Source: Ignavibacteriota bacterium
GTDB taxonomy: Bacteria; Bacteroidota; Ignavibacteria; SZUA-365
NCBI GenBank assembly: GCA_016218045.1
Contig: JACRFB010000013.1
Coordinates: 62,001 to 126,000, forward strand
Reading direction: 5' to 3'
DNA length: 64,000 bases
In this document: positions 89-62,995 of the stretch, piece by piece
How the letters are laid out: every line of letters begins with the position of its first letter
Position numbering within the stretch: the stretch's first letter is position 1
Notes under the pieces: model-generated
Database searches by the model: none
What the model was told of the DNA's origin: nothing
Seen by the model: only the letters and a program-made list of their open reading frames with translations
Position numbers and translations under genes: made by a program

Positions 89-673
89 TTAACGGATCTG
101 CACCGGGATGTTGCTGTTGATATCGGTATCGTACACCGTGTCGTTCTTATTGCCGCTGTCGTAATGTCGGAGCTGCACGTTGATGATACCCGTTGCGGAT
201 GGCCCGGCCGTTGTTTGCAGGAGGAACGTGAGGCCGACATCGAACCCCTTCGAGTCCTTGTCCTTGTCTGATATCAGAATCCGAGACGCGTCGAGGCCGC
301 CTCCCGGTGCAAATAAAAAGATGTGTCCGTCCTTTTCTTGCACGATCTCGCTGGTCACATTTTCGGCCAGCGATTTTGATTCATCATACAGGGTGATGCT
401 GCCGCGGTATTGTACACCGGCGTCGAGTTGTAGCAGCCCTTCCACGCGTGCTTTCCCTTTCACAACCGTGGTATCACGCACGGTTGCCGTTGTTTTTTGA
501 GTCGTGGGATTCCCCGCTGCGTCGAGCGCAACAAGTTCGACCGTGATCGTTGTGGGAGGCGCATGTTCGTTGTCGACAGGAGGTGCCGTCGGATCGTCGC
601 TGCATGAAGCGAAGACGAGAGAAGCGAGCGCAAGGGCCGCGATAGTCAGGTTGCGTATGTGAGAAGTGTACAT
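89..673 (-). CDS. Lipoprotein paired with TonB receptor (194 aa)
   Basis: A small outer-envelope lipoprotein. The N-terminus is a lipoprotein signal peptide with the lipobox FASC followed by SDD, so the mature protein would begin at Cys24. The rest is a beta-rich domain of about 170 residues with a stretch reading SITLYDESKSLAENVT and then EKDGHIFLFAPGGG. This resembles the lipoprotein family often annotated in Flavobacteriia as 'type 1 periplasmic binding fold superfamily', which commonly sits beside TonB receptors. It lies 53 bp downstream of the TonB receptor gene on the same strand, so the two are probably co-transcribed. A role in binding or delivering the receptor's substrate, perhaps a metal, is inferred from this context. 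There are no catalytic motifs. The start fits the signal peptide and has a purine-rich GGAAG upstream. Confidence 0.7.
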   Translation of the reverse strand: MYTSHIRNLTIAALALASLVFASCSDDPTAPPVDNEHAPPTTITVELVALDAAGNPTTQKTTATVRDTTVVKGKARVEGLLQLDAGVQYRGSITLYDESKSLAENVTSEIVQEKDGHIFLFAPGGGLDASRILISDKDKDSKGFDVGLTFLLQTTAGPSATGIINVQLRHYDSGNKNDTVYDTDINSNIPVQIR

Positions 674-55155: not shown

Positions 55156-57762
55156 ATGCGTGCCTCTGTTTTTGCGACTCTCTTTTTCGCGCTCGCATAC
55201 ACTGCGACAGCTCAGGTCGCATTTTTAGAATCAGGCCGACCCCTCTCGACTGAATCTTCAACCGGACTCCTCGCGGCTTCCCCAACCCGGGCCATTGTCG
55301 ATCTGAATGGCACATGGCAATATAAGACCGACGACGACGGTACATGGAGATCTGTACGGGTCCCTTCTTCATGCACTGAGATCGTTCCACTGACGTTTCG
55401 ACGTGATTTCGATGTTTCGGCGGCACTCGCGCGCAAGGCGGTTTTCCAGCTTGTGGCTTTGAGTATTTCGTATTACTGCGAAATCAGAATTAACGACAAG
55501 TTTATTGGCAAACATGCGGGTGAAACAACCTTCAGTTTCAAAATAGGACCTGGGATCATCAAACCGGGCCGCAACAGCATTGTCATCTCCATATCACCTT
55601 CGCTGAATGCGCAGGAAACCCTGCCTCTGCGTGAACAACTGTGGAATCGATTTCATTATGGCGGCATTCTTCAGGATATCGCACTCGTTGGGAATGGAGC
55701 CGTCTGGGTTCAGGAAACGGAAATTCAAACCTCGATTTCAGGCGAAGGCAAGGCGGCTTCAATCACGTATAAAGCACTCCTGAATTCCGGCCCCCTTCCC
55801 CTGCACCGCGCTGATTCTAACGAATCTTCCGGCTACGGGAAATCAACTGTAGAACACGTTGTAGAAGTCATCGACGCACAGAGCGGATCACTCGTCTACC
55901 GGAGTGAAGCGAAGCGGATAGACATTGAACAGGATCGCCTCGTTCCCGTTACAACATCCCTTTCCATTCCTGCCGCGAGACTGTGGTCTCCCGAAACTCC
56001 CTCGGTGTATACTCTTGTTCAGCGAACATACCGCGGCAGCGAACTTGTCGATGAATCGTACACACATGTCGGGCTCCGTCATTTCCAAACCGATGGCTCA
56101 AGGTTCTTGTTGAACGGCGCCCCTGTTCTTCTGAAGGGTGTTTCATATCTCGAGAGTTCACCCCTTCGTGGTCGTTCGCTCACCATGGACGATATCGAGC
56201 GCGACGTGTTGATCATGAAAAATCTCGGTGTCAATGCTGTGCGCATATTATCGGGTACCGTACATCCGTTCTTTCTGTCCTTGTGTGACAAGTACGGGCT
56301 GCTCGTGTTTCAGGACCTTCCTGTGTACGGCGTTCCGTCATCGATTCTCGAACGTCGCGCATTCCAAGCTAGTGCCCGAAATATGCTTCGGGAAATAATT
56401 ATCCGGGACGCCGCCCACCCCTGTATTGTGGCATACGGACTCGCTCAGGGCATCGATGGCGCGCACCCCGGATTTGCGCCGTATGGAGCAGCCCTGCTGC
56501 AATCACTGCGCGGAACAAACGGGCAGCTAACGTACATGTCGTTTATTCGTCCGCCACTCACCGCACTTCCCGATGGACTGTCCTTCGCATCATACGACCT
56601 CCTACCAGCTCCGGTTGAAAAGACGCGCGAGGTCCTGAATGACCTTCAGCGTGTAACCGAAAGCGGGCTTCTGTTGCTGTCGAGTCTCTCCTATCCGGTG
56701 GAAGTGGGCAACTATAACGGGTACAGCGATCCCAGATCGATAGATGCCCAAGCCCAATACTACCTCGAGATCTTTGCTGAAACAATGAACAGAAAGCTTG
56801 CCGGATTGTTCGTGCACAGTTTCGCCGACTGGCAACTGCGGCATCCCGTCATGTCGGTCGACAGAGTCCAGCAATTTATGGGAACCGCAGGAATCCTTGA
56901 TGCATATCGACAGAAACGGCTGGCCTACGAAGTACTGAAAGCGCGCTTCAACAACGAGAAGCCACCGGTACTGATGGTGGGCAACTACACACCGGAGCAT
57001 CCTGCATCTTTTGTTGTGGTTGGCATTCTGCTCATCCTCATTTTCGCCATCGTGTACAATGTGTTTCGACGATTCCGCGAAAATGTGGTTCGTGCATTCA
57101 TGCGGCCATTCAATTTTTTCAGCGATGTGCGCGACCAGCGCATGCTCTCAATTTTCCAAACCTCCGTTGTCGGGCTCATAGGCTCCTTCGGTTCCGCCCT
57201 TCTGTGCGCAAATCTCATGTACTTCTGGCGCACGAATATTTTTGCAGATGCCTTGATTCATCAGGTCGTGAGATCAATCTGGCTTAAACAGTGGTTGAAT
57301 TACGCGGCATGGAATCCGCTCTCAAATCTGCTTGTGACTGGCGTAATTTTGTTTCTGCTCCTTCTCGTCTACGCGGTGCTTCTCCGCGTCGCTGCGTTTT
57401 TTATGAAGCGTACGATCACACTGTTTGATTCATACAGCGTCTCGATGTGGTCCGTGCTCCCAATCATAATGCTCGCACCGTTGGGTCTGATTCTTTACCG
57501 CTTGATGGAATCGCCCGTGCTCGAATTTCTTGCGCTCGCAGCGAACATCGTTTTTCACGTGTGGATTTTCTCTCGTCTTCTTAAAGGAACAGCAATTGTT
57601 CTGGATGTGCGACCCGGCATCTTTTACCTCGGGGGTTATGCAGTGGCGATAGCGGCAGTGGTGTTCTGGATTCTGTCACTGAACGCCGAGTTTGAAACAC
57701 TCGCGTATCTGCGCTACCTCGCACATGCCTGGTGGTACATGCAAGGAATTCCCGCATCATAG
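55156..57762 (+). CDS. Membrane-anchored GH2-like protein, probably catalytically inactive (868 aa)
   Basis: Begins with a signal peptide (MRASVFATLFFALAYTATAQ, chosen start). Residues about 45-620 follow glycoside hydrolase family 2: sugar-binding jelly roll (IVDLNGTWQYKTDDDGTWRS, VPSSCTEIVPLTFRRDF), Ig-like domain, and TIM-barrel pieces (FLLNGAPVLLKGVSYLESS, MKNLGVNAVRILSGTVHPFF, GLLVFQDLPVYGVPS, RDAAHPCIVAYGLAQGID, FVHSFADWQ). The acid/base Glu expected after the AYGLAQG strand and the nucleophile Glu of the TEYG-type strand (here SLSYP) are both absent. Six transmembrane helices fill about 620-842, possibly a Yip1-like domain. The extracytoplasmic part may bind a glycan as a sensor. The function is unknown. 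Confidence 0.65.
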   Translation: MRASVFATLFFALAYTATAQVAFLESGRPLSTESSTGLLAASPTRAIVDLNGTWQYKTDDDGTWRSVRVPSSCTEIVPLTFRRDFDVSAALARKAVFQLVALSISYYCEIRINDKFIGKHAGETTFSFKIGPGIIKPGRNSIVISISPSLNAQETLPLREQLWNRFHYGGILQDIALVGNGAVWVQETEIQTSISGEGKAASITYKALLNSGPLPLHRADSNESSGYGKSTVEHVVEVIDAQSGSLVYRSEAKRIDIEQDRLVPVTTSLSIPAARLWSPETPSVYTLVQRTYRGSELVDESYTHVGLRHFQTDGSRFLLNGAPVLLKGVSYLESSPLRGRSLTMDDIERDVLIMKNLGVNAVRILSGTVHPFFLSLCDKYGLLVFQDLPVYGVPSSILERRAFQASARNMLREIIIRDAAHPCIVAYGLAQGIDGAHPGFAPYGAALLQSLRGTNGQLTYMSFIRPPLTALPDGLSFASYDLLPAPVEKTREVLNDLQRVTESGLLLLSSLSYPVEVGNYNGYSDPRSIDAQAQYYLEIFAETMNRKLAGLFVHSFADWQLRHPVMSVDRVQQFMGTAGILDAYRQKRLAYEVLKARFNNEKPPVLMVGNYTPEHPASFVVVGILLILIFAIVYNVFRRFRENVVRAFMRPFNFFSDVRDQRMLSIFQTSVVGLIGSFGSALLCANLMYFWRTNIFADALIHQVVRSIWLKQWLNYAAWNPLSNLLVTGVILFLLLLVYAVLLRVAAFFMKRTITLFDSYSVSMWSVLPIIMLAPLGLILYRLMESPVLEFLALAANIVFHVWIFSRLLKGTAIVLDVRPGIFYLGGYAVAIAAVVFWILSLNAEFETLAYLRYLAHAWWYMQGIPAS

Positions 57763-57871: not shown

Positions 57872-60800
57872 ATGTATCTGAGCAAACTCGAAATACTCGG
57901 TTTCAAATCGTTCGCCAATAAAACCAATATCGCCCTGAACGATGGTGTCACTGCCATCGTGGGGCCGAACGGTTGCGGAAAAACAAACATTGTTGACGCG
58001 CTTCGCTGGGCCCTGGGAGAGCAACGCTACTCGACGCTTCGTAGCGACAAGATGGAGGATGTCATTTTCAACGGGAGTAAGTCCCGGAAACCCATTGGAG
58101 TCGCCGAAGTATCCCTGACCATTCAAAACAACAAGGGTATCCTGCCCGTCGAGTACAACGAGGTGACGATCACGCGCAGGGTCTTTCGTTCCGGCGAAAG
58201 CGACTACATGCTCAATCGCACCGTGTGCCGACTGAAGGACATCGTTTCTCTATTCATGGATACGGGGATGGGATCCAACGCGTATTCCGTCATTGAGCTG
58301 AAAATGGTAGAGACCATTCTCAGCGATAAGATGGAAGAACGACGCCGTCTCTTCGAAGAAGCTGCGGGTGTGACAAAGTACAAAAGCCGTCGCAAGGAGG
58401 CCCTCCGTCGTCTTGATGAAGTGGAGGCGGATTTGCTTCGTGTCGATGACATCATCGCCGAAGTCTCAAAGGCCGTGAACTCCTTGAATCGACAGGCAAA
58501 AAAGGCAGAGCGGTACAATCAGTATATCGACCGGCTCCGGGTGCTTGAGATCGATGTACTGCAGCGGGATTATACGAGCCTGCTTCTTCGTCTCGAACCA
58601 CTTGAGGAACGTCTGCGTACGGCGGTAGTCGAGCGGGATGCGAGCGAAGTCGAAGTCGAACGTGAGGAGGTCCTTCTGCATGAACACCGCGCGGGTGAGC
58701 GCGAAATCGAAGAACGACTCGAACAGGCTCGTCATGAACTGGGCGGATACATTGCGCGTATCGGCGAGTATGAGCAGGCCCTTGCCGTGAATATCGAGAG
58801 AGAGAAGGCGCTGCTCTCGAGCATCGAACGACTCACAGCCGCGGGAGAAACGTATACCGCGCGCCAGCACGAATCCGAAGCTGCACGAAATGCGGCAGCC
58901 GAACGACTGGGCACTGCACAGACCGAGCTGGGTGTTTTGGAGCAGGACTACGAAGAGCAACGAACCGCTCATGTGCAGCGGGAGGAAATCGTCTCTGCGA
59001 AAAAGCTCGAAATGGACAGTCGGCGCGCCGCACAAATGAGCACGATGCAGGAGCTATCGCGCACCACCGCCGAGTATGATCGACACGGAGGACGCATCGA
59101 GTCGATCGACAAGAATGTTCATAAACTCTCCCTTGAGGATGAGCAGGCTCGCAAAGCGCTGGCGGAACTGCGTGAACAGCTCACACACGAAGACGTAAAA
59201 CAGAGCCAGATTCTCGAAGCCGCGATCGCGGCAGAGCGGGAATTCCATTTGATGGAAGAGCGCCGCCAAACCATTCGCGGTGAGATTGACGTGTTGCAGA
59301 ATCAGGGATTCGAACTGCAGAGTGTGATCGGCGAAAAGATGACCAAGATCGATTTTCTCAGCGGATTGGTCGACAGGCTTGAGGGCTACTCCGAAAGCGT
59401 GCAGCATCTCTTACGTAACAGGGACTGGTCCGCCACCACCTACGGCACCATCGCCGATGCAGTAAACACCCGAGATGACCTCCGGGTAGCCGTCGAGGCG
59501 GCTCTGGGTGATGCTGCGCATTATGTTCTCGTCAATGATTTCACGGAAGCAATCAGCGGCCTTCATAATCTGAAACATCACCGCAAGGGTAAGGCGACGT
59601 TCGCCTGTCTCTCGCGGATGCCGAAAACGAAGGCGGTGCCCTTCCCCATTGCCGGCGACGGAGTGGTGGGCTGGGCTGCGGAACTGGTCTCGCACAGGCC
59701 TGAGCACGACGACCTTTTCCAATTCTTACTCCGGAACTGTCTTCTGGTCCGCGATGCGGAAGTTGCCCATCGATGCATACGTGAGTATCCGCAACTCCGC
59801 TGCGTGACAATCGACGGAGACGTGTTTGACAGCAACGGCATTGTCCGCGGCGGAAGCCATGGACAGGAAGAAGGCGGACTGATCGGGAAAAAAGACCAGA
59901 TTGCCCGATTAACAAGGGAAGTTGAGCAGTTGAAACAGCGTCTCGCCGAAAACCAGCGACTCCACGAAGAACGCAACGGGGAGTACAGTGATATCGATCT
60001 CCGTCTCTATGCCGACCATATGAAGCAGCGGCAGCAGGATTTGTCGGCGCACGAGCGGCGGGTTGCGCAAATGGTGTTCGAGGCCGAGAAGTACGAGCGT
60101 CAAATTCAGAAAAGCGGGGACGAACGCACAGCCCTTGCCGCGGAACGCGAACAGGCTGAGGAAGAGCGGGCAGGCCTTCTTCCGCGCATCGAAGAATTAC
60201 GGACACAGCTATCCGATATTGAACGTGCACTCGAAGCCGAGTCTCTGGCGCTCGCCGAGCTTGAACAGGAGTACGCCCGAAGTGCGGAATCACTCAATGC
60301 CCGCAACCTGGCACGCGTGCAAAAAATCGGAGAGATTCAAAACCTTCACAGCGAACAAGAACGGCTTGCCCGGACCTTGACCGAAACACTCGAATCGCTT
60401 GCTGCAACCGATCGCGAAATTGAGCACGCGCGCAGCGCCACGGAGGGTCTTGTTGAGGAACGCGCTCAACTCGAACGGAACATAGAGCAGTACGGAGCAG
60501 AACGGCAGCGGGCCGAAGAAATGGCCCGCGTCATCGAATCGGAGCTCGTGAACAAACGTAACACCGCTGAAAACATAGAGCGGCTGCTCACGGACGAACG
60601 GCATAAACATACGCAGTCCGTCACGGTGGTCCATGAAACCGAATTACGTATCAGCGAGATTCGTCACAGAATAGAGACTCTTGAGCAACGCGCGCGTGAA
60701 GAATACGAACTCACGCTCCAGCGTCAGGCATACACCGAGGAAGACGTTTTTGATCTTGCTCAAGCTCGAGAGGAAATCAACGACCTGCGCATGAAGGTGA

Positions 60801-61432
60801 AGGCACTCGGTCTCGTTAATCCTCTGGCATACGAGGAGTGGACGCGGGAGAAGGAGCGTTTCGACCTTCTCACAACACAGCGGGAAGACTTGGTCCAGTC
60901 GCGGCAGACACTCATCGACACAATCAAGGAAATCAACCAGACAGCGCAGGACAAGTTTGCCAGCACGTTCGAAGAAATCAGAAAGAACTTCATCACCATT
61001 TTCAAGTCGCTGTTTGACGAGGGCGACGAAGCTGATCTGATTCTCGGCGAAGGAGACGACCCACTCGAAGCACGCATCGATATCATCGCCAAGCCCCGCG
61101 GCAAGCGCCCGCATTCGATAGACATGCTGTCCGGCGGCGAGAAAACGCTCACGGCCATCGCGTTGCTTTTTGGTATTTATCTCGTCAAACCGAGTCCGTT
61201 TTGTATTCTCGACGAAGTCGACGCTCCGCTCGACGATGCAAACATCGATCGTTTCATCCGCATCCTTCGGAAGTTCTCCGCGAACACGCAATTCATTGTT
61301 GTCACGCACAATAAGCGCACCATGGCTGCGGCCGATACGCTTTATGGCGTAACAATGGAGGAAGAAGGAGTCTCCAAAATCGTCGCAGTCGATTTTGCGA
61401 AGGACTCGATGACTCGTTTCATGAATAATTGA
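57872..61432 (+). CDS. smc: Chromosome segregation protein SMC
   Basis: SMC ATPase that organises and segregates the chromosome, loaded at parS by ParB. Domains: N-terminal ATPase half with KLEILGFKSFANKT and Walker A GPNGCGKTN, then FMDTGMGSNAYSVIELKMVE. Long coiled coils at about 165-490 and 690-1020, rich in Glu/Arg, flank a hinge at about 500-680 (YGTIADAVNTRDDLRVAVEA, VTIDGDVFDSNGIVRGGSHG). The C-terminal half has signature SMLSGGEKT-type LSGGEKTLTAIALLFGIYL and Walker B CILDEVDAPLDDANIDRF. At 1186 residues it is normal length and complete. Confidence 0.97.
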   Translation: MYLSKLEILGFKSFANKTNIALNDGVTAIVGPNGCGKTNIVDALRWALGEQRYSTLRSDKMEDVIFNGSKSRKPIGVAEVSLTIQNNKGILPVEYNEVTITRRVFRSGESDYMLNRTVCRLKDIVSLFMDTGMGSNAYSVIELKMVETILSDKMEERRRLFEEAAGVTKYKSRRKEALRRLDEVEADLLRVDDIIAEVSKAVNSLNRQAKKAERYNQYIDRLRVLEIDVLQRDYTSLLLRLEPLEERLRTAVVERDASEVEVEREEVLLHEHRAGEREIEERLEQARHELGGYIARIGEYEQALAVNIEREKALLSSIERLTAAGETYTARQHESEAARNAAAERLGTAQTELGVLEQDYEEQRTAHVQREEIVSAKKLEMDSRRAAQMSTMQELSRTTAEYDRHGGRIESIDKNVHKLSLEDEQARKALAELREQLTHEDVKQSQILEAAIAAEREFHLMEERRQTIRGEIDVLQNQGFELQSVIGEKMTKIDFLSGLVDRLEGYSESVQHLLRNRDWSATTYGTIADAVNTRDDLRVAVEAALGDAAHYVLVNDFTEAISGLHNLKHHRKGKATFACLSRMPKTKAVPFPIAGDGVVGWAAELVSHRPEHDDLFQFLLRNCLLVRDAEVAHRCIREYPQLRCVTIDGDVFDSNGIVRGGSHGQEEGGLIGKKDQIARLTREVEQLKQRLAENQRLHEERNGEYSDIDLRLYADHMKQRQQDLSAHERRVAQMVFEAEKYERQIQKSGDERTALAAEREQAEEERAGLLPRIEELRTQLSDIERALEAESLALAELEQEYARSAESLNARNLARVQKIGEIQNLHSEQERLARTLTETLESLAATDREIEHARSATEGLVEERAQLERNIEQYGAERQRAEEMARVIESELVNKRNTAENIERLLTDERHKHTQSVTVVHETELRISEIRHRIETLEQRAREEYELTLQRQAYTEEDVFDLAQAREEINDLRMKVKALGLVNPLAYEEWTREKERFDLLTTQREDLVQSRQTLIDTIKEINQTAQDKFASTFEEIRKNFITIFKSLFDEGDEADLILGEGDDPLEARIDIIAKPRGKRPHSIDMLSGGEKTLTAIALLFGIYLVKPSPFCILDEVDAPLDDANIDRFIRILRKFSANTQFIVVTHNKRTMAAADTLYGVTMEEEGVSKIVAVDFAKDSMTRFMNN

Positions 61433-62356: not shown

Positions 62357-62995
62357 ATGAACCGGCGACAGTTTTTCCGATTCGGGTTGTCCGGACTCAA
62401 AGAATCGGTCAAGAAATCCGCTCCGGAAATAGTGCGGCCCGCACTGGGCGTTTTGCCATTTGACGTGACTATCCTCACAGATAAACCCGAAGTTGCGGAG
62501 ACGGTCGCCGGCGAATTACTCCGAGAACATTTTGGTGAGCGGATGATTCGTCTCAAACAAAGCGTGTTATCTGGAGTCTACCCCGGTGGCGTGTTGCTTC
62601 ATGAACGGAACATTCTCCGATCGCACTACGATGGCGTCTCCCTCTTTCATGGCGCACTCGGGCTTCTGGAAAGGGAGCTTGGTCTTCCCGCGATGCAAAA
62701 CAATCCTACCTTGATCCGTTTTACGAATATCATGCCTCCGATGAGTAGAAGTGTCGAGGTGTTCCGCAGAGAGGAGATGTTGCTTGCACTCCCACTATCG
62801 GAAAACGGGAACTTCGATATCGAGGGCGAATGCGGTACGCTGCGGTTGACAGTGCATGCGGGCTCCTTTCGGATCTCCGATGCACAGTGCAGACATAAAA
62901 CCTGTATAGCACATCCCCCGATAATCACCCCGGGACAACGGATCACGTGCGTACCGAATGCAATAACCGCAATTGTTGGTGCACATTTGGGATAA
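62357..62995 (+). CDS. NusG domain II-containing protein (212 aa)
   Basis: Starts with MNRRQFFRFGLSGLKES, which looks like a short Tat-type or cytoplasmic leader. The N-terminal half has LPFDVTILTDKPEVAETVAG and HYDGVSLFHGALGLLERELG, not assigned. The C-terminal region matches the NusG_II (PF07009) domain: FDIEGECGTLRLTVHAGSFR, ISDAQCRHKTCIAHPPI and ITPGQRITCVPNAITAIVG, with the usual C-x4-C pair. NusG_II proteins are envelope or redox-associated proteins of unknown role. The gene lies 88 bp after the M23 gene. Confidence 0.7.
   Translation: MNRRQFFRFGLSGLKESVKKSAPEIVRPALGVLPFDVTILTDKPEVAETVAGELLREHFGERMIRLKQSVLSGVYPGGVLLHERNILRSHYDGVSLFHGALGLLERELGLPAMQNNPTLIRFTNIMPPMSRSVEVFRREEMLLALPLSENGNFDIEGECGTLRLTVHAGSFRISDAQCRHKTCIAHPPIITPGQRITCVPNAITAIVGAHLG

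What the first reader, a model, noticed from the sequence alone, without database searches (positions are those of the whole stretch)
55156..57762. Glycoside hydrolase 2 pseudoenzyme fused to six membrane helices
The GH2 scaffold is nearly complete, but both catalytic glutamates appear lost, and the protein continues into a polytopic membrane domain. An inactive lectin-like GH2 on a membrane stalk next to rlmI and smc would be an unusual sensor or structural protein.
Basis: partly seen in the sequence, partly recalled or inferred. Interest (0 to 1): 0.6.

Follow-up and report, generated by a model that had tools for sequence, protein, structure and literature searches.

The report
Dead glucuronidase membrane protein beside SMC
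Nearly every member of a little-studied class of Bacteroidota-related bacteria carries one membrane protein whose outer part is a sugar-cutting enzyme that has lost its cutting residues, and its gene is almost always directly followed by the gene for SMC, the ring that organises the chromosome, so it may be an unrecognised link between cell envelope and chromosome.

Summary
Window 55156-57762 (+) encodes 868 aa: export signal, complete beta-glucuronidase-like GH2 fold (model pLDDT 90; best PDB match Z 36), then six membrane helices with a divergent Yip1-type domain. The acid/base Asn-Glu reads Gln431-Gly432 and the nucleophile Ser510; twelve ordinary GH2 proteins of the same class show Asn-Glu and Glu in those columns. 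It is no oddity of one genome: 383 of 391 genomes searched in the class carry it, as do four further families of the phylum. Both Glu survive in 5 of 129 orthologue rows (all Kryptonia); elsewhere the pocket decays while the scaffold stays. The most conserved stretch is predicted to face the cytoplasm. The neighbour that matters is smc: directly downstream in 108 of 125 orthologues with readable sequence, median gap 9 nt, and in 14 of 14 orthologues outside the class. Where one family lost the GH2 part, the membrane part still precedes smc. I propose a non-enzymatic membrane partner of SMC, the dead GH2 being its envelope-side binding or support domain; interaction is inferred. The main rival is co-expression only. 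Nine searches of an open-access library found no description.

The parts
55156..57762 (+). Whole gene: pseudo-GH2 plus Yip1-like membrane protein, 868 aa, stop included
55156..55215 (+). Predicted export signal (residues 1-20, hydrophobic helix 2-17); recognised by eye, no signal-peptide program run
55282..55701 (+). GH2 N-terminal sugar-binding-like domain, residues 43-182
55702..56070 (+). GH2 Ig-like domain, residues 183-305
   Evidence: PF00703
56071..56955 (+). GH2 TIM barrel, residues 306-600, eight strands modelled
   Evidence: PF02836
56251..56256 (+). Position of the conserved active-site His-Tyr (here S366-G367)
56446..56451 (+). Position of the acid/base Asn-Glu (here Q431-G432)
56683..56685 (+). 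Position of the nucleophile Glu (here S510)
56710..56769 (+). Family motif NGYSDPxSxxAQA region after strand 7, second most conserved 20-residue window
57004..57063 (+). First membrane helix (residues 617-636)
57067..57135 (+). Predicted cytoplasmic helices 638-660 (RRFRENVVRAFMRPFNFFSDVRD), most conserved stretch of the protein
57100..57672 (+). Yip1-like domain, residues 649-839 (below Pfam cut-off here, over it in five of ten relatives tested)
57872..61432 (+). smc (TIGR02168, over cut-off), the conserved downstream partner gene; gap here 109 nt

Best explanation
The gene makes an inner-membrane protein that no longer cuts sugars. After export, the GH2 part sits in the periplasm, where its intact fold (not its chemistry) is used, most likely to bind an envelope glycan or a protein, or as a rigid support. 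The chain crosses the membrane into a Yip1-type bundle whose conserved arginine-rich helices (638-660) face the cytoplasm. There it works with the SMC condensin encoded by the next gene, most likely as a membrane anchor or regulator that ties SMC, or the DNA it holds, to the envelope. Shown by computation: fold, loss of both catalytic Glu, near-universal retention in the class, Yip1 similarity, tight and ancient smc adjacency. Inferred: which side each part faces, a shared mRNA, any contact with SMC, any ligand.
For: Fold: Z 36.4, rmsd 2.2, 531 residues aligned to 6ncw. Loss: in 124 non-Kryptonia rows H366, Y367, N431, E432, Y483, E510 and W554 survive in 6, 11, 7, 16, 15, 10 and 24, whereas scaffold positions N113, G170, W277, D299, N320, D558 and G579 survive in 121-124. 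Retention: 383 of 391 genomes. smc: start found downstream in 105 of 129 rows, median gap 9 nt, 93 at 30 nt or less, 24 with a 1-nt overlap; 14 of 14 out-of-class orthologues have smc next. The 17 rows with sequence but no smc next all lie in one 18-row clade. In family f12 the GH2 part is gone but the membrane part still precedes smc in 4 of 4 loci mapped. Most conserved window 638-657 at 3.01 bits; the catalytic positions have 1.04-1.37 against a median of 1.43. Two genomes lacking the protein, G136 and G138, also lack smc, as expected if one assembly gap took both.
Against: No interaction, localisation or phenotype data exist. Conserved adjacency is weak evidence of contact: in PMC2234087 only 17.1% of the conserved gene pairs tested are known interacting pairs in E. 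coli (section 10 read). The pair is broken in one clade that keeps both genes. Four f12 genomes have no match to the protein and all four keep smc, so SMC can work without it. ScpA is present in 21 of 21 relatives, so nothing is missing from that side of the known SMC complex. Neighbours beyond the pair include lipid A genes in some genomes, which fits an envelope role just as well.
Confidence: 0.4

Rival explanations
1. Co-expression only: an envelope protein (glycan sensor, lipid or export factor of Yip1 type) whose gene sits in front of smc because both are needed in proportion to growth; it never touches SMC.
For: Persistent genes cluster without interacting (PMC2234087, abstract and section 10). 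In some genomes the same run continues into lipid A genes lpxB and lpxK and a phospholipid-methyltransferase-like gene. The broken pair in one clade is tolerated.
Against: The pair outlasts the other neighbours: by one script smc was next in 93 of 109 loci (95 with L045 and L056, which one search shows as smc), while the commonest upstream neighbour, tpiA, occurred in 39 of 109 and the commonest gene after smc in 50 of 83. In f12 only the membrane part is kept, still before smc.
Confidence: 0.4
2. Glycan-binding pseudoenzyme of envelope assembly: the old sugar pocket still binds a uronate-like or lipid A related sugar and the Yip1 bundle handles the lipid side.
For: Closest solved folds are beta-glucuronidases and a beta-galacturonidase. 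Some conserved GH2 residues are kept widely: R363 in 118 and D558 in 123 of 124 rows. Lipid A genes lie downstream of smc in some genomes.
Against: His366, Tyr367, Tyr483 and Trp554, conserved in the ordinary GH2 controls, are mostly gone. f12 keeps the membrane part without any GH2 part.
Confidence: 0.12
3. An active enzyme with relocated catalytic residues or other chemistry.
For: Pseudoenzymes can use migrated residues (PMC10211241, passages). Kryptonia rows keep the full active site. Acidic residues remain at two positions conserved in GH2 (D387, D558).
Against: Replacements are heterogeneous: 39 different letter pairs at 431-432 and 14 letters at 510 across 129 rows, with conservation below the median. 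A relocated site should be conserved.
Confidence: 0.06

Closest known systems
GH2 beta-glucuronidase / beta-galacturonidase (6ncw, 6xxw, E. coli GUS)
   Same: Same three-domain fold over residues 30-602, Z 34-36; same order of domains; same scaffold residues.
   Different: Both catalytic Glu and five further active-site residues replaced; predicted to be exported; carries a six-helix membrane domain.
Yip1 domain membrane proteins (PF04893; YIPF in eukaryotes)
   Same: Profile match in 19 of 28 members at E up to 1 and over cut-off in 5 of 10 tested.
   Different: Fused to one further helix and a GH2 fold; conserved RPYNFFADIRDQR helix. Yip1 homologues are reported from bacteria and archaea (PMC8327215, passages), but I saw no function for them there.
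Known membrane links of bacterial chromosomes (RacA, RocS; seen only in a search listing)
   Same: Would connect nucleoid machinery to the membrane, if the proposal is right.
   Different: No relation was tested or found; this one is linked by gene order to SMC itself and has a predicted periplasmic domain.

Membership tests
Glycoside hydrolase family 2 | Sugar-binding, Ig-like and TIM-barrel domains with GH2 profile matches | tested here: met
   PF02836 and PF00703 over cut-off; Z 36.4 to 6ncw
Glycoside hydrolase family 2 | Acid/base Asn-Glu after strand 4 | tested here: not met
   Q431-G432; controls 12 of 12 NE
Glycoside hydrolase family 2 | Nucleophile Glu after strand 7 | tested here: not met
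   S510; controls 12 of 12 E
Glycoside hydrolase family 2 | Hydrolytic activity | not testable with these tools
   Needs a bench assay
Yip1 domain family | Match to PF04893 over its gathering score | tested here: inconclusive
   Window 16.6 bits against 28.6; five of ten relatives 28.7-33.2 bits
Yip1 domain family | Five-helix membrane bundle | tested here: met
   Model shows five long helices after the first membrane helix, pLDDT 93.4
Yip1 domain family | Fold match to a solved Yip1 protein | tested here: inconclusive
   No Foldseek match at E 0.001 and best VIA-align Z 5.4; I do not know whether a Yip1 structure is in the library
SMC complex subunit | Gene coupled to smc | tested here: met
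   108 of 125 rows; median gap 9 nt
SMC complex subunit | Physical interaction with SMC-ScpAB | not testable with these tools
   No complex prediction or bench assay available here
SMC complex subunit | Is the kleisin ScpA itself | tested here: not met
   ScpA is a separate gene in 21 of 21 relatives including this genome

The most novel reading that the evidence does not exclude
A dedicated transmembrane partner of the SMC condensin: a dead glucuronidase reads or grips the periplasmic envelope and, through a Yip1-type bundle, holds or regulates SMC on the other side, giving one branch of bacteria a direct envelope-to-chromosome coupling that predates the split between the window's class and at least four other families of the phylum.
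Probability: 0.3. Interest if true: 0.85.

Novelty: new variant of a known kind. Interest (0 to 1): 0.6.

Why it matters
A protein kept in about 98% of the genomes searched in a whole class, which by its domains would be named a glycoside hydrolase, is probably no enzyme in nearly all of them, so automatic annotation would mislead. If the smc link is functional it would be an unknown envelope partner of SMC, testable by one deletion. It also gives a natural series for how an enzyme turns into a scaffold: one clade (Kryptonia) keeps the full active site, most have lost it in many different ways, and one family has dropped the enzyme part and kept the membrane part.

Tried and rejected
Shifted catalytic Glu: rejected. 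Decaying pseudogene: rejected, since the frame is open, the scaffold is conserved between rows only 19-35% identical on average, and the gene is near-universal. Genome-specific fusion or assembly artefact: rejected, 129 aligned rows share the architecture (L046 and a few others are cut by contig ends). Replacement for a missing SMC subunit: rejected for ScpA; ScpB was not searched. Phage origin: no PHROG match. rlmI as partner: not conserved. Two weak out-of-class matches of the membrane profile (G406, G507) are not orthologues: no smc next, 112 and 56 bits. Fold search for the membrane domain gave no clear relative. Literature: nine searches of an open-access library found no description of this protein or of its smc pairing; subscription journals are mostly not held. 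Distribution outside this phylum could not be tested: the single genome-contig scan confirmed 331 of 340 stretches but shows only the best 80.

Limits of the counts: the 129 rows come from loci I had fetched, are not independent, and include two identical pairs (127 different rows); 13 repeats of the same contigs were dropped beforehand. The class sample (391) and phylum samples (148 and 296) were drawn by the tool; one search asked for completeness of 80 or more and for 95 or more. The tree is FastTree only and its own checks warn of long branches. The smc start was found by a short motif; for L013, L033 and L047, which the motif missed, I used the gene map (L055 is the wider locus of L013's genome). 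L040 (G039) is frame-broken and was left out of the alignment. Sidedness of the membrane part rests on the export signal and on where charged loops lie, not on a topology program.

Full report
What is there. Window 55156-57762 (+) is an open frame of 868 aa. Pfam finds the GH2 TIM barrel and Ig-like domain over cut-off, and a weak Yip1 match over residues 649-839. The closest solved sequences are GH2 enzymes, and with a 58-row profile 120 distinct PDB sequences match at 1e-20 or better, led by beta-glucuronidases. The predicted structure is confident almost throughout (pLDDT 90.4, pTM 0.88; only 216-227 is below 50) with an N-terminal helix 2-17, a full GH2 scaffold to about residue 600, and six long helices from 617 on. 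The GH2 part aligns over 531 residues to the beta-galacturonidase 6ncw at Z 36.4, rmsd 2.2. The membrane part folded alone is confident (pLDDT 93.4) but has no clear solved relative.

Is it dead? In GH2 the acid/base Glu follows Asn after strand 4 and the nucleophile Glu ends strand 7 (established GH2 knowledge, recalled). In the model these places are residues 431-432 and 510, reading Q-G and S. As a control I aligned 12 ordinary GH2 proteins from genomes of the same class: all 12 read N-E and E there. Across 129 orthologue rows both Glu survive in five, L018, L023, L083, L084 and L085, which form one clade; the three with named records are Candidatus Kryptonium, a Kryptonia bacterium and Candidatus Chrysopegis. 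Sixteen further rows keep only the acid/base Glu and ten only the nucleophile. The decay is aimed at the pocket: seven active-site positions survive in 6 to 24 of 124 other rows, while seven scaffold positions survive in 121 to 124. The window's genome has this single GH2 barrel match and so no ordinary GH2 enzyme was found in it. On the tree the full-site state needs one change, the nucleophile Glu seven and the acid/base Glu eleven. Whether Kryptonia kept the ancestral site or regained it is not settled; I think retention with repeated loss elsewhere is likelier.

Who has it. Of 61 close genomes 59 match; of 391 in the class 383 match. Of the eight without, four belong to family f12, and G136 and G138 lack smc as well, which looks like one missing stretch. 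Outside the class, 12 of 112 sampled genomes matched the membrane profile, ten of them strongly; a second sample with the whole-protein profile brought four more, G568, G582, G585 and G600. Named loci are Ignavibacteria, Kapaibacterium, Kryptonia, Chlorobi and unclassified Bacteroidetes genomes, with one record labelled Armatimonadetes that falls in the same class by its genome group. In one search full-length orthologues listed score 386 bits or more and the other GH2 proteins listed 230 or less, so the family is well separated.

The smc link. The downstream gene is smc (TIGR02168 over cut-off). In loci mapped across families, smc follows on the same strand in most. A motif search found the smc start behind 105 of 129 rows, with median gap 9 nt, 93 at 30 nt or less, and 24 with a 1-nt overlap. 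Of the other 24, four end at the contig edge and three have smc by the gene map, leaving 108 of 125. The remaining 17 all fall in one clade of 18 rows, whose last member L066 has smc next, so the link broke perhaps once or twice. All 14 out-of-class orthologues examined have smc next (in L216 the smc frame is cut by the contig end). As a yardstick, with one script on 109 loci, smc was next in 93, while the commonest upstream neighbour (tpiA) occurred in 39 of 109 and the commonest gene after smc in 50 of 83. In the window the gap is 109 nt and no terminator-like site was listed in it.

What the membrane part adds. Yip1 matches 19 of 28 members at E up to 1 and passes its cut-off in 5 of 10 tested. 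The best-conserved 20-residue window of the whole protein is 638-657, between the first and second membrane helices. With an exported GH2 domain this stretch would lie in the cytoplasm (inference from topology). Four f12 genomes keep only this membrane part, still before smc, and four others of f12 have no match at all; in the two whose smc surroundings were mapped, nothing like it lies upstream. So the membrane part is the element most tightly tied to smc, and the GH2 part is the more dispensable one.

How it probably works. I commit to a non-enzymatic membrane partner of SMC, with the pseudo-GH2 on the envelope side (confidence 0.4). Fold, dead site, spread, Yip1 likeness and gene order are shown by computation; sidedness, shared transcript, contact with SMC and any ligand are inferred. 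Co-expression without contact is about as likely: conserved gene pairs are often not interacting pairs (PMC2234087, abstract and section 10), and lipid A genes also lie nearby in some genomes.

Compared with what is known. It has the GH2 fold but fails the catalytic tests, so it should not be filed as a glycosidase, except perhaps in Kryptonia. Its membrane part looks like a divergent Yip1 domain. Yip1 homologues are known from bacteria and archaea (PMC8327215, passages). Nine searches of an open-access library found no account of this protein or its smc pairing.

Noticed in passing
L018:1570-4023, L023, L083-L085 (Kryptonia): These orthologues keep the complete GH2 active site (His-Tyr, Asn-Glu, Tyr, Glu, Trp), the only clade to do so; an active membrane-anchored glycosidase next to smc is likely there.
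   Followed up: partly
L041-L044 (family f12): Only the membrane domain remains, as a separate short gene directly before smc; four other f12 genomes have no match at all.
   Followed up: partly
L034:3107-3112: An smc start codon (TTG) can follow the stop codon of the upstream gene directly and in the same frame, so a single TGA separates the two proteins.
   Followed up: no
L040 (G039:C1:1985000-2003000): The orthologue is broken into three frames in this single-contig genome; decay or sequencing error was not decided.
   Followed up: no
L058:15459-18221: After smc come a phospholipid-methyltransferase-like gene (weak LmtA match), lpxB and lpxK, so the smc run joins lipid A genes in this genome.
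   Followed up: partly
window 62357-62995: A 212-aa protein with a NusG domain II match (PF07009) follows the M23 peptidase downstream of smc.
   Followed up: no
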